A program made the position numbers and the translations under genes. Of a stretch of DNA of 64,000 nucleotides, positions 29,019-44,611 are shown in pieces (position 1 is the stretch's first letter; every line of letters begins with the position of its first letter). The DNA comes from Alphaproteobacteria bacterium. Lineage in GTDB: Bacteria; Pseudomonadota; Alphaproteobacteria; UBA9219. Location of the stretch: contig JAFALY010000004.1 of NCBI GenBank assembly GCA_019233975.1, positions 1 through 64,000 of the forward strand, written 5' to 3'. Under the pieces are notes generated by a model, which made no database searches, was not told where the DNA came from, and saw only the letters and a program-made list of their open reading frames with translations.

Positions 29019-30425
29019 TTAGACGTGAAGCGGACGGCCATCAACTGCCAAAGCAGCTTCCTTAACGACTTCATTCAGTGTCGGATGTGCGTGGCATGTA
29101 CGCGCAACATCTTCGCTGCTGGCGCCAAATTCAACCGCCAAAGCAAGTTCTGCAATCATGGTGCCGGCATCCGGCCCGATGATATGGGCTCCCAAGAGGC
29201 GGTCAGTCTTGGCATCAGCCAGAATCTTTGCAAAACCTTCCGTATCGCCCATGGCACGGGCGCGACCGTTCGCCGAAAATGGGAACTTGCCGACCTTAAA
29301 CGCAACGCCTTCCGTCTTTAGCTGTTCTTCGGTTTTGCCGACAGATGCAATTTCTGGCCATGTGTAAACAACGCCCGGAATAGCGTCATAATTGATGTGT
29401 CCAGATTGACCCGCCATCATTTCGACGCAGACAACACCTTCATCTTCTGCTTTGTGCGCCAGCATCGGCCCGGCGATAACGTCGCCGATAGCATAGATAC
29501 CTTTGACGTTTGTCTGGAAATGATGATCGACCACAATGCGCTTGCGCTGATCCAACGCAACGCCTGCGGTATCCAGCCCCAGCCCTTCCGTATACGGGCG
29601 GCGACCGATAGAAAGCAGAACAACATCGGCATCCATCTTTTCAACCGCACCGCCTGCAGCAGGCTCCAACGTCAAGGCTACTTTCTTGCCGTCATTTTTG
29701 GCAGATGTAACCTTGGTTGAAAGTTTGAATTCCATGCCCTGCTTGGCCAGTATCTTCTGCGCTGTCTTGGATAGTTCACCATCCATGCCGGGTAAAATGC
29801 GATCAAGGAATTCAACCACGGTGACCTTAGTCCCCAAACGCTGCCACACGGAGCCCAGTTCCAGACCGATAACGCCGCCGCCGATGACAACCATGCTCTT
29901 GGGGACTTCGGCCAGTGCCAGCGCACCGGTCGATGTCACAATACGCTTTTCATCTACATCAACGCCGGGCAGCGGCATGCTGTCCGAGCCCGTGGCAATC
30001 AGAATATTCTTGGTCGCATAGGTTTGTGTGCCCGATGCGCCTTCAACGGCCACCTGACCGGCAGTCACAACCCGGCCCTTACCCTTCAGCCAATCCACCT
30101 TGTTCTTGCGGAACAGGAACTCAATACCCGCTGTGTTTTCCTTAACTACCTTATCCTTGTGCGCCATCATGGCCGGCAGGTCGAGCGACACGCTACCGAC
30201 CTTGACCCCATGCATGGCAAGGCTGTGCTGAGCCTCCGCAAATTTTTCTGAGCTGGTCAGCAGCGCCTTGGAGGGGATACACCCCACATTCAGGCATGTA
30301 CCGCCCAAAGTCGCCCGCATTTCCACACAGGCGGTCTTTAAACCCAACTGCGCCGCACGAATAGCCGCAACATAGCCGCCCGGGCCACTGCCGATAACGA
30401 TCAGATCATAGGTTGTATTGCTCAT
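29019..30425 (-). CDS. lpdA: Dihydrolipoyl dehydrogenase (E3)
   Basis: 468 residues: FAD motif VIGSGPGGY, redox disulfide GGTCLNVGC (Cys44-Cys49), NAD motif VVIGGGVIGLELG, and the dimer-interface active-site CHAHPTLNE near the C-terminus. It reoxidises lipoamide of 2-oxo-acid dehydrogenase complexes or the glycine cleavage system; none of those partners is in the window. Start at 30425 gives the standard N-terminus; an upstream in-frame start adds 25 unrelated residues. Confidence 0.95.
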   Translation of the reverse strand: MSNTTYDLIVIGSGPGGYVAAIRAAQLGLKTACVEMRATLGGTCLNVGCIPSKALLTSSEKFAEAQHSLAMHGVKVGSVSLDLPAMMAHKDKVVKENTAGIEFLFRKNKVDWLKGKGRVVTAGQVAVEGASGTQTYATKNILIATGSDSMPLPGVDVDEKRIVTSTGALALAEVPKSMVVIGGGVIGLELGSVWQRLGTKVTVVEFLDRILPGMDGELSKTAQKILAKQGMEFKLSTKVTSAKNDGKKVALTLEPAAGGAVEKMDADVVLLSIGRRPYTEGLGLDTAGVALDQRKRIVVDHHFQTNVKGIYAIGDVIAGPMLAHKAEDEGVVCVEMMAGQSGHINYDAIPGVVYTWPEIASVGKTEEQLKTEGVAFKVGKFPFSANGRARAMGDTEGFAKILADAKTDRLLGAHIIGPDAGTMIAELALAVEFGASSEDVARTCHAHPTLNEVVKEAALAVDGRPLHV

Positions 30426-30427
30426 AA

Positions 30428-32665
<2,238 letters not shown>

Positions 32666-32726
32666 AATAAGCCTTATAAAATCAGTGTTTTTTGCTTGCC
32701 AAAGATAAAAAATAGCGGCAACTTTT

Positions 32727-32741
32727 GATTCAGATTGAATC
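32727..32741. promoter_or_regulatory. 15-bp perfect dyad upstream of the HU gene
   Basis: GATTCA-GAT-TGAATC, 35 bp before the HU start codon. Position and symmetry suggest an operator or leader hairpin. The binding factor is unknown. Confidence 0.35.
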
Positions 32742-32775
32742 ACAGTCTGTTCAACCAAACTTACAGGAACAACAC

Positions 32776-33075
32776 ATGCCTACAGCGACTCAACCGACCG
32801 TCACGCTCAAGACCATCGCCTCCGACTTGGCCGAAAAGCATGAGCTGCCGAAGAAGCAGATGAACCTGATTATGGATGACCTGGTCACCACGCTGACCAA
32901 GAACCTGAAGAAGGGCAACCGCGTTCGCGTTGCTGGCTTCGGTATCCTGCAGGTCCGCAAGCGCGCTGCCCGCACCGGCCGTAACCCTGCCACGGGCGAA
33001 ACCATCCAGATCCCGGCGAAGAAGAAGATCGCTTTCCGTCCGGCGAAGGAACTGAAGGAAGCCGTCGGCAAGTAA
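32776..33075 (+). CDS. HU family DNA-binding protein
   Basis: 99 residues. The HU/IHF fold is plain: the arm sequence GRNPATGETIQIPAKKKIAFRPAKELKEAV includes the tip Pro that intercalates DNA. The N-terminal helices (KKQMNLIMDDLVTTLTKNLKKG) are a little longer than in classical HU. It compacts and bends DNA. ATG 32776 has AGGA upstream; an upstream in-frame start at 32725 falls in the dyad region. A strong terminator follows. Confidence 0.92.
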   Translation: MPTATQPTVTLKTIASDLAEKHELPKKQMNLIMDDLVTTLTKNLKKGNRVRVAGFGILQVRKRAARTGRNPATGETIQIPAKKKIAFRPAKELKEAVGK

Positions 33076-33095
33076 GCCACTGCTGAATTCAAAGG

Positions 33096-33124
33096 AAAAG
33101 GGCGCCTTACGGCGCCCTTTTTTA
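33096..33124. terminator. Bidirectional terminator between HU and kdpD
   Basis: Stem AAGGGCGCC (33098-33106), loop TTAC, stem GGCGCCCTT (33111-33119), flanked by T-runs on the plus strand (to 33123) and by A-runs upstream that read as T on the minus strand. It can end both the HU transcript and the convergent kdp transcript (stop at 33147). Confidence 0.93.
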
Positions 33125-33146
33125 TGCTTGTTATTAAAAGAATATT

Positions 33147-35822
33147 CTACACAACCGGCAACCGGATAATGATTTGCGTGCCCATTCCATCGGGTCCCGG
33201 CAACGCCTCAATACGCCCCGCGTGGGCTTCGATAAAGCCGCGACTGATGGCCAAGCCCAGTCCTGACCCTCCCGTATGGTGGGCGCCCGACGTAACGCGG
33301 TAAAACATGTCAAAGATGCGTTCACGCTCACCTTCGCTGATGCCGTCGCCCTGATCTATAACCGACACACGTGCATAATGCGCCTCACGGCGGCCAACAA
33401 TCTTGATGGGTTTGTCGGCGGGCGAGAAACGGCACGCATTGTCTATGACGTGCACCAACACACGCTCGATCATCGACATATCGACGTCAACCATAGGCAT
33501 ATCTGCATCGACGTCGATATCAATATCACGGTCCTGAATAACCTCACCCAACTTGGATATAGAGGCCTCAATCAGCGAGCGAATACTTGCGGGTTCGCGC
33601 AACAGGCGCAAATCACCCTTCACGATGGCTGTCATATCCATAAGGTTCTGCAGAAAGTGATTGAGCTGGCGCATATGCCGGTCGGCATCGCGCAACAGTG
33701 GTATCGTTTCCGGCATACACCGCACGATGTTCTTTAAGCGCCGCAGCGTGTCAGTCATGGCATCTAAAGGGGAGCGCAGGTCGTAGGTGACGGATGCCAG
33801 AAAGGTAGACCGAACCTTCTCCGCTTCCGTCTGAACACGCGCGGTCTCAACATCATTGGATAAAATGGCGCGCTCCAGCACAACCGCCGATTGACTGGCC
33901 AGATTATTCAGGAAATGTTCCTGATCCGGTGTAATAATGCGTTCATTGGGTCGTACAGCCAGCAAGCCAATAAGGTTCTGGTTTGCCTTTAAGGGCAGGC
34001 AATAAAAGCCTGCAGCAGGTAAAGTATCCGAATTGTACCCCGCCACTTTGCCATGCCGCACGGACCAGTCAGCCGCCGCCATTGAAACGGCGTCCAAACG
34101 CGTCCCCTCCGGCCAGGCGGCCAGCTGTTTTAAGGAGTCTTGTCGAAACAAGAAAACCACCACACGGGCGTTCAGGGATTCAGCTGTGTGCCGCGCTACA
34201 ATATTACCGGCATCCTCAACGATAGAGGCCGAGGCGATTGCTTTATTAAAATCATACAACGCCTGCACGCGTATGGCATTTTGTCGGGTGACTTTAATCT
34301 GCTTTTGCAGATAATCACCGATAAAGCTAACCGCAATAGAAACCAGCATGAAGAACAGCAGCGTCAGAATATCTTCGCGATGATAAACGACAAACGAATA
34401 ACGCGGTTCGATAAAAAAGAAATCAAGGCACAAGCAACTTATAACAGCAGCAAAAAGCGATACGGAAAGCCCGTGCTTGATGGCCACCATCATGACGCCG
34501 ATTACATACAGCAGCGACAAGGTCTGCGGCGGCGCGTAGTTCGAGAGCAGCTGCGCCAAAACCGTCGTTAACGCTATATAACCCAAAGAACGCAGATGTG
34601 CCGGCCCTTCTATCTGCTGCCACAGAGAGCCGATAGTTGTTTTGGCATCGTCCCTTACAACCGGTGGCAGCTTGGGCTTTTTAGGCTCGCTATCGTTAAT
34701 GGTGAGAACATCAAATTTGCGTCCATTTTCCAGAATATCTTGTGACGCAGAGGGTCGCAGTAAACGTGAAACCAAAGTACGGCGTGATTTACCAACCACC
34801 AGCATACTGACATTACGTTCAGCTGCGACGCGCAGGACCTCTGCTGCAATATCGTCGCCCGTTACAACCATCGTTTCGCCACCCAAAGACTCCGCCAAGT
34901 GCAGCGCCTGTGAAATATTTCTGCGCTTTGCTTCCGACAAATGCGCATGGCGATATGTTTCGACGTACAAAGCAATCCATGCCGTTTGGCGCCTGTCGGC
35001 ACTGCGCTTTGCCGCGCGAATGAGCGTGTTAGCCTGCCCATCCTCGGAAATGCATACCATGACCCTTTCCGTCGTCGGCCATGGGCCCGCAATGGCATTC
35101 TGCTTCATCAGATCGGTCATCTGATCGTCAACGCTTTGCGCAACCTGTCGAAGGGCCAGTTCACGCAAGGCGGTCAAGTTGCCCTGCGTAAAGAAGCGGT
35201 TCATTGCCAGCCGCGCCTGCTCGGGGAAATAGACTTTCCCTTCCTTCAGACGTTGCAGAAGTTCTTCTGGCGTCAGGTCAATCAGTTCAACCGAATGCGC
35301 GCGCCTGAGGACGGAGTCGGGCACCGTTTCGCGTACCGTTACGCCCGTAATACGCGAGACGATGTCGTTCAGGCTTTCTATATGCTGCACATTTAGGGTG
35401 GAATAGACGTTGATGCCAGCGTCCAGCAATTCCTCAACATCCATATAGCGTTTGTAATGACGCGCACCGGGTATATTCGTGTGCGCAAGTTCATCCACCA
35501 AAACAAGTTGCGGTTTTCGTCGCAAAATGGCGTCCAGATTCATTTCCTGAAACTGCGTGCCGCGATAGCCGATTTCCAGCCTCGGGATAGACTCCAAACC
35601 TTCCAGCATGGCGTCAGTTTCTGCGCGTTTATGCGTTTCAACAACGCCAATAACTACATCGACCCCTTCTACCTTACGGGCTTTGGCTGCGCGCAACATA
35701 GAAAATGTCTTGCCCACCCCCGGTGCCGCACCCAAAAAAATACGCAGCTTACCTTTCTGCTCTTTAAGCAGCTGGTTCAAGATGGCATCAGGTGAAGGGC
35801 GTGTTTGGGTTACGTCATTCAT
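33147..35822 (-). CDS. kdpD: KdpD-type sensor protein with Tyr replacing the phospho-accepting His
   Basis: 891 residues in full KdpD order: N-terminal KdpD domain with Walker A GAAPGVGKT (31-39) and VDELAHTNIPG, a universal-stress-like domain, four membrane segments (about 410-520), GAF domain, dimerisation helices and an ATPase domain. The ATPase N (HVIDNACRFSP), G1 (DQGDGIS), F and G2 (GGSGLGLA) boxes are all present. In the H-box, normally SHDLRTPL, the sequence is TYDLRSPL: residue 680 is Tyr (codon TAC, 33785-33783). Autophosphorylation as known is therefore not possible. No kdpE follows; HU converges directly. It may act as a phosphatase, a sensor or a Kdp assembly factor, or be decaying. 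TGATG overlap with kdpC. Confidence 0.93.
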   Translation of the reverse strand: MNDVTQTRPSPDAILNQLLKEQKGKLRIFLGAAPGVGKTFSMLRAAKARKVEGVDVVIGVVETHKRAETDAMLEGLESIPRLEIGYRGTQFQEMNLDAILRRKPQLVLVDELAHTNIPGARHYKRYMDVEELLDAGINVYSTLNVQHIESLNDIVSRITGVTVRETVPDSVLRRAHSVELIDLTPEELLQRLKEGKVYFPEQARLAMNRFFTQGNLTALRELALRQVAQSVDDQMTDLMKQNAIAGPWPTTERVMVCISEDGQANTLIRAAKRSADRRQTAWIALYVETYRHAHLSEAKRRNISQALHLAESLGGETMVVTGDDIAAEVLRVAAERNVSMLVVGKSRRTLVSRLLRPSASQDILENGRKFDVLTINDSEPKKPKLPPVVRDDAKTTIGSLWQQIEGPAHLRSLGYIALTTVLAQLLSNYAPPQTLSLLYVIGVMMVAIKHGLSVSLFAAVISCLCLDFFFIEPRYSFVVYHREDILTLLFFMLVSIAVSFIGDYLQKQIKVTRQNAIRVQALYDFNKAIASASIVEDAGNIVARHTAESLNARVVVFLFRQDSLKQLAAWPEGTRLDAVSMAAADWSVRHGKVAGYNSDTLPAAGFYCLPLKANQNLIGLLAVRPNERIITPDQEHFLNNLASQSAVVLERAILSNDVETARVQTEAEKVRSTFLASVTYDLRSPLDAMTDTLRRLKNIVRCMPETIPLLRDADRHMRQLNHFLQNLMDMTAIVKGDLRLLREPASIRSLIEASISKLGEVIQDRDIDIDVDADMPMVDVDMSMIERVLVHVIDNACRFSPADKPIKIVGRREAHYARVSVIDQGDGISEGERERIFDMFYRVTSGAHHTGGSGLGLAISRGFIEAHAGRIEALPGPDGMGTQIIIRLPVV

Positions 35823-36391
35823 CAGTGATTGGCGAGATTATCCAGTGCGCGGTTCAATTGTAGCACATTAATGCGCGTTTCGCCAAAAACGTGCCAGTCA
35901 CGCTCCCGTGTATTCTCTGCAATCAGGTTATTGATAACGCCGACATCCATATGCCGGGATTGTGCCACATGTTGAGCCTGCAGGCGTGCATTGGCCACAG
36001 AGATGTCCGGATCCAACCCTGAGCCAGACCCCGTAACGGCATCAACCGGTATGCCACCTGTGAATCCGGTGGCACGAATGGCCTGAATCCGTTCCTTAAC
36101 CTGCTTGATCAAATCATCGCTGCCTGTCGCCAGATTGCTGCCGCCCGACTGGGTCGCATCATATCCGTTGCCTGCAGCGGACGGGCGGGAATGAAAATAC
36201 GTGTCACCCGCAAAATTTTGGCCGATGAGGTCAGAACCGATCACCTTGCCGTTGGCAACGATCAGGCTGCCCTCTGCCTGATAGGGAAAGAATGATTGAC
36301 CTATACCCCAGATGGCCAGCGGGTAAAGAATACCCGTCAGAACTGTCATTAGAACCAGCAGAGCCAGGCTTGCCCGTAATTGACCGCGCAT
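35822..36391 (-). CDS. kdpC: Potassium-transporting ATPase subunit KdpC
   Basis: 189 residues: one N-terminal membrane segment (LALLVLMTVLTGILYPLAIWG) and a periplasmic domain with the family motifs FHSRPSAAGNGYDATQSGGSNLA and SGSGLDPDIS. KdpC stabilises the KdpFABC complex. It begins one base after kdpB ends, and its stop shares a base with the kdpD start. Confidence 0.96.
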   Translation of the reverse strand: MRGQLRASLALLVLMTVLTGILYPLAIWGIGQSFFPYQAEGSLIVANGKVIGSDLIGQNFAGDTYFHSRPSAAGNGYDATQSGGSNLATGSDDLIKQVKERIQAIRATGFTGGIPVDAVTGSGSGLDPDISVANARLQAQHVAQSRHMDVGVINNLIAENTRERDWHVFGETRINVLQLNRALDNLANH

Positions 36392-36392
36392 C

Positions 36393-38432
36393 TCACACCC
36401 CCATAAAAGAGCTGACCAGCATATCGATCAGCTTGATACAGACAAACGGCGTCACGACGCCACCCACCCCATAAACCAGAAGGTTTCTTTGCAAAACACT
36501 GCTAGCTGATCCCGGACGGTACTTCACCCCCGCAAGGGCAAGTGGCACCAATGCGATCAAAATAAGCGCATTGAAAATAATCGCCGACAAAATGGCACTT
36601 TCCGGACTGCCCAAATGCATCAGGTTAAGACGCTGCATCGACGGGAAGATACCGGTGAAAAGTGCAGGTATGATGGCAAAGTATTTTGCAACGTCATTCG
36701 CAATTGAAAACGTCGTCAACGCGCCGCGGCTCATCAGCAATTGCTTGCCGATCATCACAATCTCAATCAGCTTGGTTGGGTCGCTGTCCAGATCAATCAT
36801 GTTACCCGCTTCACGGGCAGCCATGGTGCCGGTATTCATGGCAACCCCAACGTCGGATTGCGCCAGCGCTGGCGCGTCATTAGAACCGTCACCGCACATG
36901 GAAACAAGGCGGCCTTCCGCCTGATAACGGCGGATAAGCTCAAGCTTCTTCTCCGGCGTTGCTTCAGCCAGAAAATCATCAACACCGGACTCCGCGGCGA
37001 TGGCCGCCGCCGTCATAGGGTTGTCACCCGTTATCATGACCGTGCGAATGCCCATGCGACGCAATTGCATAAAACGTTCATGAATGCCCGGCTTCACGAT
37101 ATCCTTCAAATGCACGACACCCAGAACCTGCTTGTCGCGCGCAACCAGCAGCGGCGTACCGCCCGTTTTGGCGACCGTTTCTATTGCCTTGATCACCTGC
37201 GTGCTGCCGCTCGTTCCACAGAGATAGAGAATAGAGTCAGGCGCGCCTTTGCGGATAGAAATAGCATCGTAATCAACGCCACTCATGCGCGTACTGGCAG
37301 TAAAGGGAATGAACGTCATACCATCCTTGCGACGCTCGGCTGCCTTAAACCCAAAGCGATCCTCAGCCAGACGCACGATGGACTTACCTTCGGGCGTTTC
37401 ATCTGCCAGTGAAGACAGCATGGCCGCTTCCGCCAGATAGGATTCTTCGATGCCCGGGGCCGGAATAAACTCGCTCGCCATACGGTTGCCAAAAGTGATT
37501 GTTCCCGTTTTATCGAGCAAGAGAACGTCAATGTCACCGGCAGCTTCGACCGCGCGGCCCGACTTCGCAATCACGTTAAAGGTTACCAGACGGTCCATGC
37601 CCGCAATACCGATCGCAGACAAAAGACCGCCGATCGTTGTGGGGATCAGGGTAATCAACAGCGCTACAAGATAGATCACAGGCACCATCTTGCCAGAATA
37701 GGCAGCAAATCCCTGTAAGGTTGTGCAGACGATAAGGAAGATCAGAGTCAAGCCAACCAGTAAGACATTCAGCGCAATTTCATTGGGTGTTTTTTGTCGC
37801 TTGGCGCCTTCTACAAGGCCGATCATCCTGTCGAGGAATGACTCACCCGGATTAACACCAATCTGAACAACGGCCCCATCTGAAACAATACGCGTACCAC
37901 CCGTAACGGCTGAACGATCACCGCCGGATTCACGTATAACAGGCGCGGATTCACCAGTGATTGATGACTCATCGACCGTAGCGATCCCTTTGACCACGTC
38001 GCCGTCACCCGGAATTACGTCACCAGGCTGCACCATGACCAGATCACCCCGGCGCAATTCCGTAGCGGGGACGAGCTCAAAGTTCACGTCTTCTAGCGAC
38101 GTAACTTTTTTCGCCATAGTTTCTGTTTTGGTTTTGCGCAAACTGTCTGCCTGCGCCTTACCGCGCCCTTCGGCTACGGCTTCGGCAAAATTGCCGAATA
38201 AAACCGTAAACCACAGCCATATAGTAATTTGCAGATTGACCGCGAAATGCTCACCGGCACCATTGCCCCATACCGTCAGGTAGGTCGACAAAACGCTTAC
38301 AACACCAACAGTGAACATGACCGGGTTACGAATAAGCTCTGTCGGGTTCAGTTTAACAAAGGAATTGGCAATGGCCTCTTTCAGCAACGCTGGATCTGCC
38401 AATGTCAAAGATTGTTTGTTCTTTTTGCTCAT
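36393..38432 (-). CDS. kdpB: Potassium-transporting ATPase subunit KdpB (P-type ATPase)
   Basis: 679 residues: P-type ATPase with TGES in SSITGESAP, the phosphorylation motif [13 protein letters not shown] (Asp near 305), KGAPDS for nucleotide binding and [16 protein letters not shown] hinge. KdpB powers high-affinity K+ uptake through KdpA. Directly follows kdpA with no spacer. Confidence 0.97.
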
Positions 38433-40160
38433 TTACATCACCGACTGGGACAGTTGTGAAAGATGCTCGGCAATCGGACCAAGCGCGATCACCGGGAAAT
38501 AGGTCAGACCACCAAACATCAAGATGACGGCGGTCAGCAAGACGACGAACATCCCGCCATGTGTCGGGAATGTGCCGTTGGATACAGGAATAATTTTCTT
38601 GGATGCCAATGAACCAGCAATCGCCAATATCGGAACAATCACCCCAAACCGTCCAACCAGCATGACAATGCCGAGCGCCACATTCTGGTACAACGTATTG
38701 GCGCTTAGTCCACCAAAGGCCGACCCATTATTGGCCGCTGCGGAGGCATAGGCATATAGCATTTGCGTCAGACCGTGTGGGCCACTGGCAGATAATGACG
38801 ACACACTGTCCGGCAAAATAAGCGCCAACATGCCGCCACCCAGCACAGTCACCGGATAGAGCAATTGCGCGACGATGGCCCACTTGACCTCTTTCGCCTC
38901 AATTTTCTTACCCAGATATTCCGGCGTACGGCCCACCATCAAACCGGCGATAAAGACGGTGATAAGCGCATAAATGATAATACCGTAGAGGCCGCAGCCG
39001 ACACCGCCATAGATAACCTCGCCCAACAACAGGTTAAACAACGGCACCAGACCACCAAGCGCCGTATAGCTGTCAAACATGCTGTTGACCGAACCGTTGG
39101 ATGTTGCCGAAGTCGCCGTTGCCCAAAGGGTGGAGTTCATAATACCAAAGCGCACCTCTTTACCCTCAAGGTTGCCGCCGATATTGGCGTTGCTGATATG
39201 TTGATCCACGCCCAGGGCATCCAGAACATGGCTGCCGTTCGCCTCAGCCACATAACAGATGACAAACCCGATAACGAACATCAGCGTCATGCTGACCAGC
39301 AAGGCCCAAGCCTGCCTTTTATCCCTAATCATGAAGCCGAAAGTCACGACAAACGAAATGGGCAACAACAGGATGCTCACTAATTGGACAAAGTCCGACA
39401 ATCCCGTCGGGTTTTCGAACGGATGCGCGCCATTGGCATTGAAGTAACCGCCGCCGTTTGAACCGAGCATCTTGATGGCAATCTGACTGGCCACAGGACC
39501 GACAGCGATTGTCTGCTGCGCCCCTTCCAGCGTTGTTGCCGTAACTGATGTGTTAAATGTCTGCGGCACCCCCTGCCACAGCAAAAAAACCGCAAAGATG
39601 ATGGCCAACGGTAGCTTGACATACAAGGTAACGCGCGTTACATCGACGTAAAAATTGCCGAGATTCGGATTTTCGCGTTGCGTGAAACTGCGGATAACCG
39701 CCACGGCAACAGCCAGCCCGGTCGCCGATGACATAAAGTTTTGAACTGTCAGGCCTACCATTTGGCTAAGCGGGCTTAACGTACTTTCACCTGCGTAAGA
39801 TTGCCAGTTGGTATTGGTCATAAAGCTGACCGCTACGTTAAAGGCCAAATGCCAAGGTGTGCCGGCAAAATGCTGCGGATTAAGCGGCAGCAAATCCTGA
39901 AACATCAGGATCAGCATGAGGAACAACATGCCTACCAGATTAAACACGACGGCGGCCAGCAGATAGCCGCGCCAGTTCATTTGACCATCCGCCTTTATCC
40001 CGGACAATGCGTAGAATGCCCGCTCCGCAGGACGTACAAGGGGACTGAGCCAGACACGCTCGCCCTGAAAAATACGCGCCATATAATATCCAAGCGGTAT
40101 CATCACTACCGCCAGAATGAACACGAACAGCAGCAGCTGATAAATATCGAACTCGCTCAT
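38433..40160 (-). CDS. kdpA: Potassium-transporting ATPase subunit KdpA
   Basis: 575 residues with about ten membrane segments and the repeated selectivity-filter loops, e.g. TNTNWQSYAGE and GSNGGGYFNANGAHPFENP. It forms the K+ selectivity pore of the Kdp complex. GAGG precedes the ATG, which comes 6 bp after the kdpF stop. Confidence 0.97.
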   Translation of the reverse strand: MSEFDIYQLLLFVFILAVVMIPLGYYMARIFQGERVWLSPLVRPAERAFYALSGIKADGQMNWRGYLLAAVVFNLVGMLFLMLILMFQDLLPLNPQHFAGTPWHLAFNVAVSFMTNTNWQSYAGESTLSPLSQMVGLTVQNFMSSATGLAVAVAVIRSFTQRENPNLGNFYVDVTRVTLYVKLPLAIIFAVFLLWQGVPQTFNTSVTATTLEGAQQTIAVGPVASQIAIKMLGSNGGGYFNANGAHPFENPTGLSDFVQLVSILLLPISFVVTFGFMIRDKRQAWALLVSMTLMFVIGFVICYVAEANGSHVLDALGVDQHISNANIGGNLEGKEVRFGIMNSTLWATATSATSNGSVNSMFDSYTALGGLVPLFNLLLGEVIYGGVGCGLYGIIIYALITVFIAGLMVGRTPEYLGKKIEAKEVKWAIVAQLLYPVTVLGGGMLALILPDSVSSLSASGPHGLTQMLYAYASAAANNGSAFGGLSANTLYQNVALGIVMLVGRFGVIVPILAIAGSLASKKIIPVSNGTFPTHGGMFVVLLTAVILMFGGLTYFPVIALGPIAEHLSQLSQSVM

Positions 40161-40166
40161 GACGCC

Positions 40167-40256
40167 TCAGAATTTTTCGGGATGGATAAGTGCGTAAACA
40201 AGATAGAGGCCAAGGCCGATGGCCGTGATGCCCCCTAAAACAAGATCGACTGACAT
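40167..40256 (-). CDS. kdpF: Kdp complex small subunit KdpF
   Basis: 29 residues: MSVDLVLGGITAIGLGLYLV and then YALIHPEKF, a single membrane helix ending in the typical HPEKF. ATG 40256 has AGAGGA 6 bp upstream. KdpF stabilises the complex and is the first gene of kdpFABC-D. The 150 bp upstream (40257-40409) should contain the kdp promoter, but I recognise no KdpE-type site. Confidence 0.93.
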   Translation of the reverse strand: MSVDLVLGGITAIGLGLYLVYALIHPEKF

Positions 40257-40409
40257 GATGTCCTCTTGCAACAGATGTGACAGTCTAAAGGTAGACCTAA
40301 TTTCCGCATTTGCAACAATAATCGGAAGTATTTCCCGTCGTATCAGTACGATTTTGTTGCTGCCCCAGAACGATTGTTGTGGTAGAAACAGCCCTTCTAC
40401 GAGGCAGTC

Positions 40410-41237
40410 ATGCACAACACCCAAAACGCCCCCGTGAAAATTACAAAAGCGGCCAACGCACGCGACAATACGCCCGCTCTAACAACCGTAACCGTGCAGA
40501 AAACGCTACAGCAGCCGCTAACCCTCGGACACTTAATCACCACTCTGGCAGGCGTCGCGCTGGGCGCCCTTATCATGACATGCGTGCAAACCACCACAGC
40601 TAAGCAGACTAACCCGACTACCACAGGTAGTGTTGTGACCTCAAATCAAACAACACCTGAAGAGACCGATATAGTGCTGCCTCCTTCAGCTTTGGCCCCC
40701 ACTCTGCGTGAGCATGCAGAAAGTCAGGTCTCCAGCCACGATCTGCAGAACGTGGGAAACACACTCACAGTAACGGCGGAGTCCGCTTACGCACTGTTGT
40801 CCGATGAACACTATGATGACGCCATAGCCGCCTATCATACCCTGCTGCGCACCGATCCGACCATGGAACCCGAACGTGGTTATTTAATTGAGGCCCTGGG
40901 ACAATCACCCTCTCTGCAATCTGAAAAAGAGTTGCTGCAGCTACAAAAGGCCACGCCAGGAGACGCGCGCATTTTTGCAGCGCTTGGTAACTTTGCCATG
41001 AATGAGAATGATTATGCGCGAGCAGTGGATTTTTATAGCAAGGCGGTAGCAAAAGATAATCACAAGGCCCAGTACTGGATGGCGCTCGGCATCGCCTGCG
41101 ACCACGCGAATGACAAAGCTTTGGCCTATGACGCTTACAGTCACGCCGCAAGCCTGTTCGTGAAAGCAGCAGACAAGGAAAACGTCGCAAAATTGAACGA
41201 ACGCATGACGTATTTGCTCCAAGCGTTGAAGCAATGA
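40410..41237 (+). CDS. TPR protein with N-terminal membrane anchor (possibly MshN-like)
   Basis: 275 residues. Short cytoplasmic N-terminus, one membrane segment (about 42-62, LITTLAGVALGALIMTCVQT), a Thr/Ser-rich linker and TPR repeats in the C-terminal half (SAYALLSDEHYDDAIAAYHTLL; ARIFAALGNFAMNENDYARAVDFYSKAV; AQYWMALGIACDHANDKALAYDAYSHAA). This layout is that of MshN, a TPR protein of MSHA pilus loci. It ends 3 bp from the end of the pilus operon on the other strand, which supports, but does not prove, a shared role. Confidence 0.7.
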   Translation: MHNTQNAPVKITKAANARDNTPALTTVTVQKTLQQPLTLGHLITTLAGVALGALIMTCVQTTTAKQTNPTTTGSVVTSNQTTPEETDIVLPPSALAPTLREHAESQVSSHDLQNVGNTLTVTAESAYALLSDEHYDDAIAAYHTLLRTDPTMEPERGYLIEALGQSPSLQSEKELLQLQKATPGDARIFAALGNFAMNENDYARAVDFYSKAVAKDNHKAQYWMALGIACDHANDKALAYDAYSHAASLFVKAADKENVAKLNERMTYLLQALKQ

Positions 41238-41240
41238 AGC

Positions 41241-41615
41241 TTACTCCGTGCCCTCTGTGACCTTCTTCTTATCAAGCCAATATGTCTGATGCGGTCGCAT
41301 TGTAATTTGTTCACCACTTACGTCTAACTGCACGCTATCTTTATTAACGGCCAAAACATGCAAGCGGTCATCCACTGCATCCGGCGTCCACCGGCGCCCG
41401 TTCAGCCAGAACACCCAATTTTGATCCGTATCGTACATAATCGCATCCAGATGCAATATAGCATTAGATAGGCTACCCTGCTGCGCCAATGCTGCATCGA
41501 CGCGTTGCGCTTCATCCTGCGTATAAAACAGCGGCGCGGTTGGCCATGCATCCTCCGCCCAAGCAGGCCACGCCAAACAAACCCAAAAGCATAAAATGTA
41601 GGCGCATTTTTTCAT
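41241..41615 (-). CDS. Small periplasmic pilus accessory protein (MshK/PilP-like, putative)
   Basis: 124 residues: signal peptide MKKCAYILCFWVCLAWPAWA, then AILHLDAIMYDTDQNWVFWLNGRRW and LHVLAVNKDSVQLDVSGEQITM. That is the small beta-domain pattern (short strands around an x-NG-x turn, then VQLxxxG) seen in MshK, PilP and GspC HR domains, which bind the secretin. Last gene of the minus-strand pilus operon; identity rests on pattern and position. An upstream TTG (41621) is in frame but ATG 41615 is preferred. Confidence 0.55.
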   Translation of the reverse strand: MKKCAYILCFWVCLAWPAWAEDAWPTAPLFYTQDEAQRVDAALAQQGSLSNAILHLDAIMYDTDQNWVFWLNGRRWTPDAVDDRLHVLAVNKDSVQLDVSGEQITMRPHQTYWLDKKKVTEGTE

Positions 41616-41621
41616 GATCAA

Positions 41622-42119
41622 CTACTCAATTGGATTTGTCAGCCAGCTCAGGGTTGCGCGCACATGCACTGGCGTTAAAGCGTCACCGCGCGCACGCTCC
41701 ATGTCAAAACTGTCAAAGCTTAGCCATCCCGGCTCCACCTTTGGCAATGCCGAAAAGAACCTGTAGGCATAAAGGTCTGTTGGCGCATCAAACGTCAATA
41801 CAATCTGATGCATTGATAAATCAGGCACACTGGTCCGACCTTGCGTCACGTGATAGTCAAAATCTTTTAATGCCATCTCTGCAGACAGTGCCGAGAGACG
41901 CTGCGCCCATTGCCGTTTACTCACTGGACGCAATAAGTCATCCACTTCGTTGCTAGCCAGAATACGCACTCCACCTAACCCGCCAGCCGAAACAAGCTGC
42001 TGGTGCTTGCTCGTTACATCGTCCAATTCACAATGCACAACAACATCCGCCGCAAACACGACGACGATCACAATCATGAAAGCAATCAAACCGCGATAAC
42101 AGAGCAACACCCCCTTCAT
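41622..42119 (-). CDS. PilO/MshJ/GspM-like pilus assembly protein
   Basis: 165 residues: one N-terminal membrane segment (GLIAFMIVIVVVFAADVVV), a short helical stretch and a ferredoxin-like C-terminal part (SMHQIVLTFDAPTDLYAYRFFSALPKVEPGWLSFDSFDMERA), the usual PilO/GspM architecture. It would dimerise with the PilN part of the preceding gene in the inner-membrane alignment complex. Overlaps that gene by 4 bp. Confidence 0.7.
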   Translation of the reverse strand: MKGVLLCYRGLIAFMIVIVVVFAADVVVHCELDDVTSKHQQLVSAGGLGGVRILASNEVDDLLRPVSKRQWAQRLSALSAEMALKDFDYHVTQGRTSVPDLSMHQIVLTFDAPTDLYAYRFFSALPKVEPGWLSFDSFDMERARGDALTPVHVRATLSWLTNPIE

Positions 42120-43399
42120 CGCGCCACCATACGTAAATGGTGCTCCACTGAATCCACATCACCGCTCGCATTCTGGGTGTGTAAATCAGGCAGCCACTCC
42201 TGTGTTGCTTCGCTTATGCTGTAATCTGATAGCTGCACATGCATCGATTGCAACAATGGCTGCATGTCCTGCGGGCCGTACAAAGTAATGTCCGCGCCCC
42301 CCTTCTTTTGTCCACCATTCTGCCACGCAAACCGCGTCACAATCCATTCGGGCGGAAGCGCATTTCGTAGCGCACTCAGCATACCGGCTGGACTTTGTGT
42401 TTCGGCGTTAAAGGCACGCCAATGTTCCTGAGCCTTGGCTACGCGCGGATCTGTCTGCTGACGGGATGTTTGCAAGGACCCGTTTAATGCCTCCATATGC
42501 GCGATCTCACGCAGAGCGTCAGCCACGTCGTATCCTGCGCATAGACATATTGCCAACAACACCACAACCACACGGCAAGTCCATGCAGCCCACAGAGGCG
42601 ATAACCAACCGAATAGTCTTGCCACCAATCCCGGCCTCGCGAGCGGATAATTGATCCGCCCAACGGCTAAGCCTTGGTTCATCTGGCATTCTGGTTGCCC
42701 TAGCACCACGCCATGAACCCGTGCTTGGCCCGCAAGCGCCTCCATCAGATTATTTTTATTAGAGTCATTTTGCGCCATAACAACAAACTGGATCTTCGAC
42801 TTATTGATGCCAAGGCGTGATACATAATCTCGCGTTGCCAGCACATCGCTTGACAACCGTGTGATATCTTCATTTGGCGCAATGCGATAAAATATAGTGC
42901 GTCCGTTTTGCACAACATAATGCACCCAACCGGATGACACAGTTTCTATGGCATATAGAACTGCGCCGTTCGTATCATGCACTTCCTGCGGGAAAGTTAG
43001 TTCCATCGGCAACAAAACGGCATAACAAACATGTCGTGATCGTAATGCCGTCAAGTCAAGGGCATCAAAGCCATTGGGCACGCCATACAGCAGCGCGTCC
43101 GTCCTACCCACAAACCTCCAACCACACAGGTTGTTGCCGAACCGCGCATGCGCTCGTCTGGCTATCAGCTTGGTGCGGTCCAACCACGAGACGGGCGGCA
43201 AATTTTCTTGGCGCAACACAATGCGATCATCATGATACGCCACGATAAATGCAGAAGGCACGAGCTTCAGACAGTACTCGCGGAACGCGGTTATGGCACG
43301 TTTGTCGTTTCGATCAACTTGTTTAAGGATCAGCCCCTTGCGTAACAGCAGTAACTGTTTCGTACCAATAACCAAGATGTAAGGTGCACTGGATAACAT
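42116..43399 (-). CDS. PilM-PilN fusion (GspL-like) inner-membrane platform protein
   Basis: 427 residues. Residues 1 to about 270 are cytoplasmic and have the place of the actin-like PilM/GspL domain. A membrane segment (WTCRVVVVLLAICLCAGYDV, about 290-310) follows, then a coiled segment and a PilN-type domain (MLSALRNALPPEWIVTRFAWQN). The fusion of the PilM and PilN parts into one chain is the MshI/GspL arrangement. Next to mshJ-like and gspF-like genes. Confidence 0.7.
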   Translation of the reverse strand: MLSSAPYILVIGTKQLLLLRKGLILKQVDRNDKRAITAFREYCLKLVPSAFIVAYHDDRIVLRQENLPPVSWLDRTKLIARRAHARFGNNLCGWRFVGRTDALLYGVPNGFDALDLTALRSRHVCYAVLLPMELTFPQEVHDTNGAVLYAIETVSSGWVHYVVQNGRTIFYRIAPNEDITRLSSDVLATRDYVSRLGINKSKIQFVVMAQNDSNKNNLMEALAGQARVHGVVLGQPECQMNQGLAVGRINYPLARPGLVARLFGWLSPLWAAWTCRVVVVLLAICLCAGYDVADALREIAHMEALNGSLQTSRQQTDPRVAKAQEHWRAFNAETQSPAGMLSALRNALPPEWIVTRFAWQNGGQKKGGADITLYGPQDMQPLLQSMHVQLSDYSISEATQEWLPDLHTQNASGDVDSVEHHLRMVAR

Positions 43400-43402
43400 A
43401 GC

Positions 43403-44611
43403 TCAATAACCCGCCTGCACATGGCCAAGGCTGCCGTAAATTGGGCCCAGAACAGCAAGCACAATCCAAGCCAGCATCCCGCCGACCAACAACGTCAATG
43501 TGGGTTCGATAAATTTTAAAAGAGCCGAAAGTTTTTCGCTGGTACGGCTAGCATAGAATTGCGCCAGATCATCAACCGCCTGCGGCAGGTTGTGCCCCGC
43601 CTCTGCAACGGCAATCATTCTGCATCGCGCAGGATCAACAAATACATGCATGGCTGATGACAGTGGATAGCCCGTTTCCACCGCTCGGCAGACACACTCA
43701 ATCTGCGCTACGCAGTACGCATTGGTGAAAGACGGCGCGGCATGACGCAATGCGTCCAAAAATTTCATGCGTGCATATAATAGACCGGATAGAGAGCTAA
43801 AAAATTGCGCGCGCTGAGCATCTTGCGCTACACCCCCCAGGATCGGTAGATAGAGCCATATTCGGTCCGTTAAAAGCCGCACGCGCGCGGAATATCTGCG
43901 CGTCACACGTAACGATACAAAACACACGGTTACAAACACGATGCCGATCGCACCAATAAGCAGAAAATTGTTAGACAGGGCAATGAGCAGTCGCGTCGCA
44001 AGCGGCAAAGACTGATGCAGTGATTGAAGAAAAGCGGCCAGTGCCGGCACAACACCAATCATCATAAACACCATAACCCCAACTGCCAGCGCACATAAGA
44101 AGGTCGGATAACGCAGCGACTTTCTAATCATACCCTGTAATTCCGCCTGCCCACGATACATGTCGGTCAGACGCGCGAACCCGGCGGCAAGCGCCCCTGA
44201 TTGTTCAGCCGCGTAAAGAACGGCACAAAAAGCAAGATTTAACCAGCCACCAGAGGACAGGCAGGCCTCTGATAAGCTATGCCCAATGCTAACTTGCGTT
44301 TTTATTGCGTGAATGCGGGCCTTCATTGTTTTAGAAAGTGATACGTCGCCAGCACCATCATTCAAGGCGTCAACCAGAGTCACCCCGGCTTGCAGCATAT
44401 AAGCCATTTGCCTGCACCAATGGGCTACCTCCAGCAGCTTAACATTGCCTACAGGCGAGGCCAGCGGTGATAACCATTGGGCTGTGCAGGCGATCAATTC
44501 CAACCGCCTTTTAGACAAAGCGGTTTGCAGATCGTTCTCATTGGCCGCTTGGAACGTGCCCTGCTCAATCCTACCCGTCGTATCAGTTGCCCGATAATGA
44601 TAATGATGCAT
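43403..44611 (-). CDS. Type II secretion/pilus inner-membrane protein GspF (PilC/MshG)
   Basis: 402 residues: starts YHYRATDTTGRIEQGTFQAAN as in GspF proteins, then two T2SSF domains each with helical bundles and membrane segments (FLCALAVGVMVFMMIGVVPAL; FIEPTLTLLVGGMLAWIVLAVLGPIY). It is the rotary platform moved by the ATPase of the next gene upstream. Separated by 3 bp from that gene. Confidence 0.93.
   Translation of the reverse strand: MHHYHYRATDTTGRIEQGTFQAANENDLQTALSKRRLELIACTAQWLSPLASPVGNVKLLEVAHWCRQMAYMLQAGVTLVDALNDGAGDVSLSKTMKARIHAIKTQVSIGHSLSEACLSSGGWLNLAFCAVLYAAEQSGALAAGFARLTDMYRGQAELQGMIRKSLRYPTFLCALAVGVMVFMMIGVVPALAAFLQSLHQSLPLATRLLIALSNNFLLIGAIGIVFVTVCFVSLRVTRRYSARVRLLTDRIWLYLPILGGVAQDAQRAQFFSSLSGLLYARMKFLDALRHAAPSFTNAYCVAQIECVCRAVETGYPLSSAMHVFVDPARCRMIAVAEAGHNLPQAVDDLAQFYASRTSEKLSALLKFIEPTLTLLVGGMLAWIVLAVLGPIYGSLGHVQAGY

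What the first reader, a model, noticed from the sequence alone, without database searches (positions are those of the whole stretch)
33147..35822. KdpD lacks the phospho-accepting histidine, and kdpE is absent
The H-box reads TYDLRSPL instead of SHDLRTPL (Tyr codon TAC at 33785-33783, one base from CAC), though the ATPase boxes are intact. No response regulator gene follows; a terminator and HU lie directly beyond. K+ regulation through the usual KdpD-KdpE phosphorelay therefore seems lost. KdpD may act without kinase activity, e.g. through its N-terminal ATP or c-di-AMP-like sensing domain, or be decaying.
Basis: partly seen in the sequence, partly recalled or inferred. Interest (0 to 1): 0.65.

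Follow-up and report, generated by a model that had tools for sequence, protein, structure and literature searches.

The report
Potassium-sensor KdpD without histidine kinase
This bacterium's potassium sensor KdpD has lost the histidine, and the partner protein KdpE, with which it would switch genes on, but keeps the separate front part that in E. coli shuts the potassium pump off directly; the same loss recurs in related bacteria and is not a sequencing slip.

Summary
The intact 891-aa KdpD (33147-35822, -) has Tyr680 (TAC, 33785-33783) at the phospho-acceptor site, and neither the operon nor the 41-contig genome (100% complete by the tool's estimate) has a KdpE. It is a trait, not a base error: the H-box Thr and two N-box residues have also changed, HisKA scores 14.5 bits against 52.6 in the kdpE-bearing relative, and other family members have Arg, Tyr or Asp there. 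In 72 full-length KdpDs of the class, all 56 with kdpE adjacent keep His and Thr; all 10 with a substituted His lack adjacent kdpE. The N-terminal domain (Walker A/B, Arg190) and KdpB TGES-Ser162 are intact, while DHp evolves about 7-fold faster in this lineage. E. coli KdpD's N-terminal domain is a serine kinase that inhibits KdpB at Ser162 and does not need the His (PMC11018627), so the best reading is a KdpD reduced to a K+-controlled serine kinase, a post-translational brake. No diadenylate cyclase or c-di-AMP motif was found. HK-less KdpDs without KdpE are already described; new here is the full-length, substitution-type form that keeps its sensor and ATP-binding domains.

The parts
33147..35822 (-). 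kdpD: full-length KdpD, predicted histidine-kinase-dead, serine-kinase motifs intact
35130..35759 (-). N-terminal KdpD domain (PF02702), the atypical serine kinase of E. coli KdpD
   Evidence: Pfam 326.9 bits; model matches the P. syringae KdpD N-domain structure 2r8r at TM 0.96 of target
35706..35732 (-). Walker A GAAPGVGKT (G-x5-GKT)
35490..35495 (-). Walker B Asp110-Glu111
34725..35069 (-). Usp domain without the c-di-AMP motif
   Evidence: motif from PMC8214093
34281..34589 (-). four-helix membrane domain (DUF4118)
33870..34202 (-). GAF domain
33627..33812 (-). degenerate DHp (HisKA) domain, 14.5 bits, below the 26.9 cut-off
33765..33788 (-). H-box TYDLRSPL: Tyr680 for His (33783-33785), Ser684 for the phosphatase Thr (33771-33773)
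33153..33473 (-). HATPase_c (CA) domain; N2/G1/F/G2 boxes kept, first N-box Asn and N-box Lys changed
37947..37958 (-). KdpB TGES motif; Ser162 is the serine phosphorylated in E. coli
35822..36391 (-). kdpC
36393..38432 (-). kdpB
38433..40160 (-). kdpA
40167..40256 (-). kdpF, 29 aa MSVDLVLGGITAIGLGLYLVYALIHPEKF (named by position and by eye)
33094..33123 (.). two-way terminator-like hairpin between kdpD and HU, where kdpE would lie

Best explanation
KdpD here no longer takes part in a His-Asp phosphorelay. It is kept as a membrane-bound, K+-controlled serine kinase: its N-terminal Walker A/B domain phosphorylates KdpB Ser162 when K+ is plentiful and so shuts off the KdpFABC pump, while kdpFABC(D) transcription is constitutive or controlled by something other than KdpE. 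Shown: loss of His, of the phosphatase Thr and of kdpE; intact serine-kinase motifs and target; constraint on the N-terminal domain with relaxation of DHp; co-occurrence of KdpD with the pump. Inferred from E. coli and D. geothermalis biochemistry: that the serine kinase is active here and K+-controlled. Not shown: how transcription is controlled.
For: E. coli KdpD phosphorylates KdpB Ser162 through this domain, and H673A or deletion of DHp-CA leaves that activity intact; HK-less KdpDs occur mainly in species without KdpE (PMC11018627). In 72 full-length KdpDs with a readable downstream region: His with kdpE 56, His without 6, substituted with kdpE 0, substituted without 10 (Fisher 1.5e-8, not corrected for kinship). 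The phosphatase Thr is kept in 56/56 KdpE-linked and 1/17 other KdpDs; K37, T38, D109 and R190 (E. coli numbers) are invariant in both groups. DHp branch length relative to the serine-kinase domain: window 7.5x (bootstrap 4.8-14), sister His-less clade 2.3x, G128a 2.4x, His-bearing control G004 not raised; Usp not raised; CA 1.3-1.8x with control 1.4x. KdpA-bearing genomes nearly all keep KdpD: 62/63 in the class sample (one of these by a fragment), 18/19 in the order with the exception at a contig edge. No DAC domain, so a K+ input through TM/GAF rather than c-di-AMP would explain why the full-length form stays.
Against: No biochemistry. KdpB's TGES Ser is common in P-type ATPases, so its conservation is weak evidence. 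The adenine-contacting Trp39 is Phe here (Tyr in most relatives). The CA domain is still constrained, which a pure serine-kinase role does not require. Cross-talk from another regulator to the kdp promoter cannot be excluded.
Confidence: 0.8

Rival explanations
1. The whole kdpD gene is a decaying relic of the lost KdpDE system with no remaining function.
For: DHp is fast-evolving and HisKA is below its cut-off; relatives G104 and G214 also have decayed CA domains.
Against: Open frames without stops in all His-less relatives of several genera; the serine-kinase domain keeps 72-80% identity with third-position-biased change; KdpD is almost never lost while the pump is kept.
Confidence: 0.06
2. 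DivL-like repurposing: the Tyr-bearing transmitter has become a sensor that binds a phosphorylated response regulator or otherwise gates the serine kinase. (Partly compatible with the best explanation.)
For: DivL, an alphaproteobacterial pseudo-kinase, has Tyr at this site and binds DivK~P (PMC4211667); the CA domain is retained in the family and the model still has a DHp hairpin and CA domain.
Against: DivL has a conserved patch around its Tyr; here the site is Y, R, D, Q or K and DHp is the fastest-diverging domain in this lineage.
Confidence: 0.1
3. Sequencing error at the His codon; KdpD is an ordinary kinase signalling to an unlinked regulator.
For: TAC is one base from CAC; reads not seen; some relatives (G020, G019, G104, G009, G015) carry an unlinked KdpE-like regulator.
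Against: Thr, N-box Lys and N-box Asn are changed too; relatives with non-His; this genome has no KdpE or KdpE-like regulator.
Confidence: 0.02
4. Split system: a separate histidine kinase and regulator of this genome control kdp transcription, KdpD keeping only the serine-kinase role, as in D. radiodurans or Anabaena.
For: Described elsewhere (PMC11018627); G104 has a KdpD-like kinase without the N-domain near a KdpE-like regulator. It differs from the best explanation only in how transcription is controlled.
Against: In this genome no second kinase matches the KdpD membrane/GAF part and no KdpE-like regulator exists.
Confidence: 0.12

Closest known systems
E. coli KdpD (tandem serine/histidine kinase; PMC11018627)
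   Same: Domain order, Walker A/B, Arg190, KdpB TGES-Ser162 target, operon kdpFABCD
   Different: His673 is Tyr, Thr677 is Ser, N-box Lys and first Asn changed; kdpE absent; Trp39 is Phe
HK-less KdpDs: KdpD/Usp-only (D. geothermalis) and C-terminally truncated forms (Campylobacterota, Archaea), PMC11018627
   Same: Serine-kinase domain kept, histidine-kinase function gone, KdpE mostly missing
   Different: Here all domains remain, including TM, GAF and a CA domain; the loss is by substitution; no DAC domain in the genome
DivL (PMC4211667)
   Same: Transmitter with Tyr in place of the phospho-accepting His
   Different: DivL keeps a conserved Tyr and docking patch and binds DivK~P; here the residue is not conserved and DHp is relaxed
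NCBIfam KdpD_non_kinase (NF038185)
   Same: The N-terminal 370 residues match (389.6 bits)
   Different: Below that model's 550-bit cut-off; the model spans 373 positions, with no transmitter

Membership tests
KdpD | N-terminal KdpD domain PF02702 with G-x5-GKT and DE | tested here: met
   326.9 bits, motifs intact
KdpD | Usp, DUF4118, GAF and HATPase_c in this order, encoded downstream of kdpC | tested here: met
HisKA histidine kinase | phospho-accepting His in the H-box | tested here: not met
   Tyr680; HisKA 14.5 bits against 26.9 needed
HisKA histidine kinase | conserved Thr/Asn needed for phosphatase activity (PMC3510030) | tested here: not met
   Ser684; Thr in 56/56 KdpE-linked KdpDs
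KdpDE two-component system | cognate KdpE, adjacent or elsewhere in the genome | tested here: not met
Atypical serine kinase of KdpB | Walker A, Walker B and Arg190 in KdpD; Glu161-Ser162 in KdpB | tested here: met
Atypical serine kinase of KdpB | phosphorylates KdpB Ser162 | not testable with these tools
   needs biochemistry
c-di-AMP-controlled KdpD | diadenylate cyclase in the genome and (A/G/C)XSXSX2N(Y/F) in Usp | tested here: not met
   Usp reads CISEDGQAN
DivL-type pseudo-kinase | conserved Tyr and conserved docking patch in DHp | tested here: not met
   site variable, DHp relaxed

The most novel reading that the evidence does not exclude
A full-length pseudo-histidine-kinase KdpD in which the transmitter, still constrained in its ATP-binding domain, has become an allosteric part that couples K+ (TM/GAF) to the N-terminal serine kinase, giving a purely post-translational K+ sensor with no c-di-AMP and no KdpE, evolved several times within one bacterial class.
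Probability: 0.3. Interest if true: 0.65.

Novelty: new variant of a known kind. Interest (0 to 1): 0.5.

Why it matters
It is a natural separation-of-function series for a sensor shown in 2024 to be two kinases in one: when KdpE goes, kinase and phosphatase residues of the transmitter go, while the serine-kinase arm and its target stay. This supports serine phosphorylation of the pump as the core function of KdpD, gives natural test proteins for K+ control of that activity without histidine-kinase background, and warns that genes annotated 'sensor histidine kinase KdpD' may not be histidine kinases.

Tried and rejected
c-di-AMP control. Riboswitch or other Rfam RNA in 30000-44000: none at gathering threshold. 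Distant kdpE: orphan KdpE-like regulators exist in some relatives but not here. Read error: rejected on the other residues and relatives. A phylogeny-aware pair test had only 3 independent pairs on starred branches (2 concordant, 0 discordant, 1 undecided) and cannot reach significance. One shared versus separate His losses in the window lineage and the g4 clade: the KdpABC plus KdpD N-terminal tree puts the window with kdpE-bearing G004 (99/98), but one joint loss is not rejected (AU p = 0.17; 0.53 on the shorter alignment). In the tree drawn the state labels are off by one residue (they show the residue before the His); one search uses the right column. The search for related loci returned only distant kinases.

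Full report
The reading of the sequence is right. kdpD is an uninterrupted 891-codon frame at 33147-35822 on the minus strand, overlapping kdpC by one base, at the end of kdpF-A-B-C-D. Its H-box is TYDLRSPL; the Tyr is residue 680, codon TAC at 33785-33783. Directly downstream come a two-way terminator-like hairpin and the HU gene. The ATPase boxes are mostly intact, with the first Asn of the N-box changed to His and the N-box Lys to Arg. Pfam finds KdpD, Usp, DUF4118, GAF and HATPase_c; HisKA scores 14.5 bits, below its 26.9 cut-off, against 52.6 bits in the closest full-length relative, which has kdpE.

kdpE is absent from the genome, not only from the operon. The window lies in a 1.88-Mb assembly of 41 contigs, 100% complete by the tool's estimate. 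It holds five Trans_reg_C proteins. The best KdpE-like match (C14, CtrA-like by inspection) is 35% identical to KdpE. A tree separates the four that align well from all KdpEs and from a KdpE-like orphan group on a 100/99 branch; the fifth, C19, matches KdpE at 26%. The orphan group occurs in some relatives, including two that also have an adjacent kdpE, so it is a paralogue.

Relatives show a trait. In the same family His is replaced by Tyr (G021), Arg (G020, G016, G018, G010, G019) or Asp (G017); G004 and G011 keep SHDLRTPL, and G004 has kdpE directly downstream. More substituted cases in the class are G128a (Arg), G214 (Gln) and G104 (Lys). G128 has a second KdpD with His and kdpE. Of 72 full-length KdpDs with readable downstream DNA, 56 have His and kdpE, 6 His without kdpE, 10 substituted His without kdpE and none substituted His with kdpE (using the kdpE calls). 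The six exceptions look like intermediates: five have lost the phosphatase Thr; the sixth, G138, is in a genome without a KdpA match. Fisher's p of 1.5e-8 ignores kinship; on the tree at least four changes of the His state are needed, and the independent-pair test is too small to be significant.

What is kept points to the function. Walker A, Walker B Asp, Arg190 and KdpB TGES-Ser162 are intact in all His-less cases where they could be read. Scaled to the serine-kinase domain, DHp evolved about 7.5 times faster in the window's lineage (bootstrap range 4.8-14), 2.3 times in the g4 clade and 2.4 times in G128a, and was not raised in the His-bearing neighbour G004; CA is close to that control and Usp is not raised; GAF is raised about 2-fold in the window's lineage. 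Pairwise identities agree. Codon-position differences in CA (0.36/0.26/0.56 against G004) still show constraint, those in DHp (0.57/0.39/0.60) little. The pump almost never occurs without KdpD. An AlphaFold model (mean pLDDT 80.7, pTM 0.39, so domain placement is unsure) gives all domains, including a DHp hairpin, and its N-domain matches the P. syringae KdpD N-domain 2r8r.

Mechanism. Silberberg et al. 2024 (PMC11018627) showed that the N-terminal domain of E. coli KdpD phosphorylates KdpB Ser162 and inhibits the pump at high K+, that H673A and deletion of DHp-CA do not affect this, and that KdpDs without histidine-kinase domains occur mainly where KdpE is missing. The T/N residue lost here is the one needed for HisKA phosphatase activity (PMC3510030). 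The simplest reading is a KdpD reduced to its serine-kinase role. D. geothermalis KdpD takes its signal from c-di-AMP; this genome has no DAC-domain protein and Usp lacks the binding motif (PMC8214093), so the retained membrane and GAF domains are the likely K+ input, which would explain why the protein has not been shortened (inference). Kup is present and TrkH was not found, so Kdp is probably the only high-affinity uptake system (inference; other families were not searched).

Novelty. HK-less KdpDs in KdpE-less species are published, and that study also checked for the catalytic histidine. The full-length, substitution-type form described here, its recurrence within one class, and the domain-resolved relaxation were not found in the papers read. 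The result is a new variant of a known kind. Tyr recalls DivL (PMC4211667), but the conserved Tyr and docking surface that mark DivL are not seen here.

Noticed in passing
L155:3874-4701, L156:3705-4604, L157:3692-4549, L158:4017-4793, L159:3748-4509, L160:3513-4460: A KdpE-like orphan response regulator (best match 39-54% identity to KdpE) forms its own clade in several relatives; in G104 it lies near a KdpD-like membrane/GAF/kinase protein without the N-domain (L159:2-1756), in G020 near a small kinase (L155:2464-3354). Possibly a second K+-related two-component system.
   Followed up: partly
L106 and L150 (genome G128): One genome with two kdp systems: one with a His-less KdpD and no kdpE, the other with His and kdpE, a natural internal control (genome flagged 10% contamination).
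   Followed up: partly
L128:4614-7205, L131:4485-7205: KdpDs of G214 and G104 show further decay: HisKA undetectable, HATPase_c undetectable or weak, N-terminal domain still above 330 bits.
   Followed up: partly
L067, L068, L069, L070, L072: In the g4 His-less clade the membrane domain (DUF4118) also evolves about 2.6 times faster; G010 scores only 23.8 bits. The K+-sensing input may be changing too.
   Followed up: no
L078, L079, L080: g2 KdpDs keep the His but have lost the Thr after it (FRKP, VRGP) and lack an adjacent kdpE: possible intermediates of the loss.
   Followed up: partly
L148 (genome G138): KdpD with an intact H-box but no kdpE adjacent and no KdpA match in the genome.
   Followed up: no
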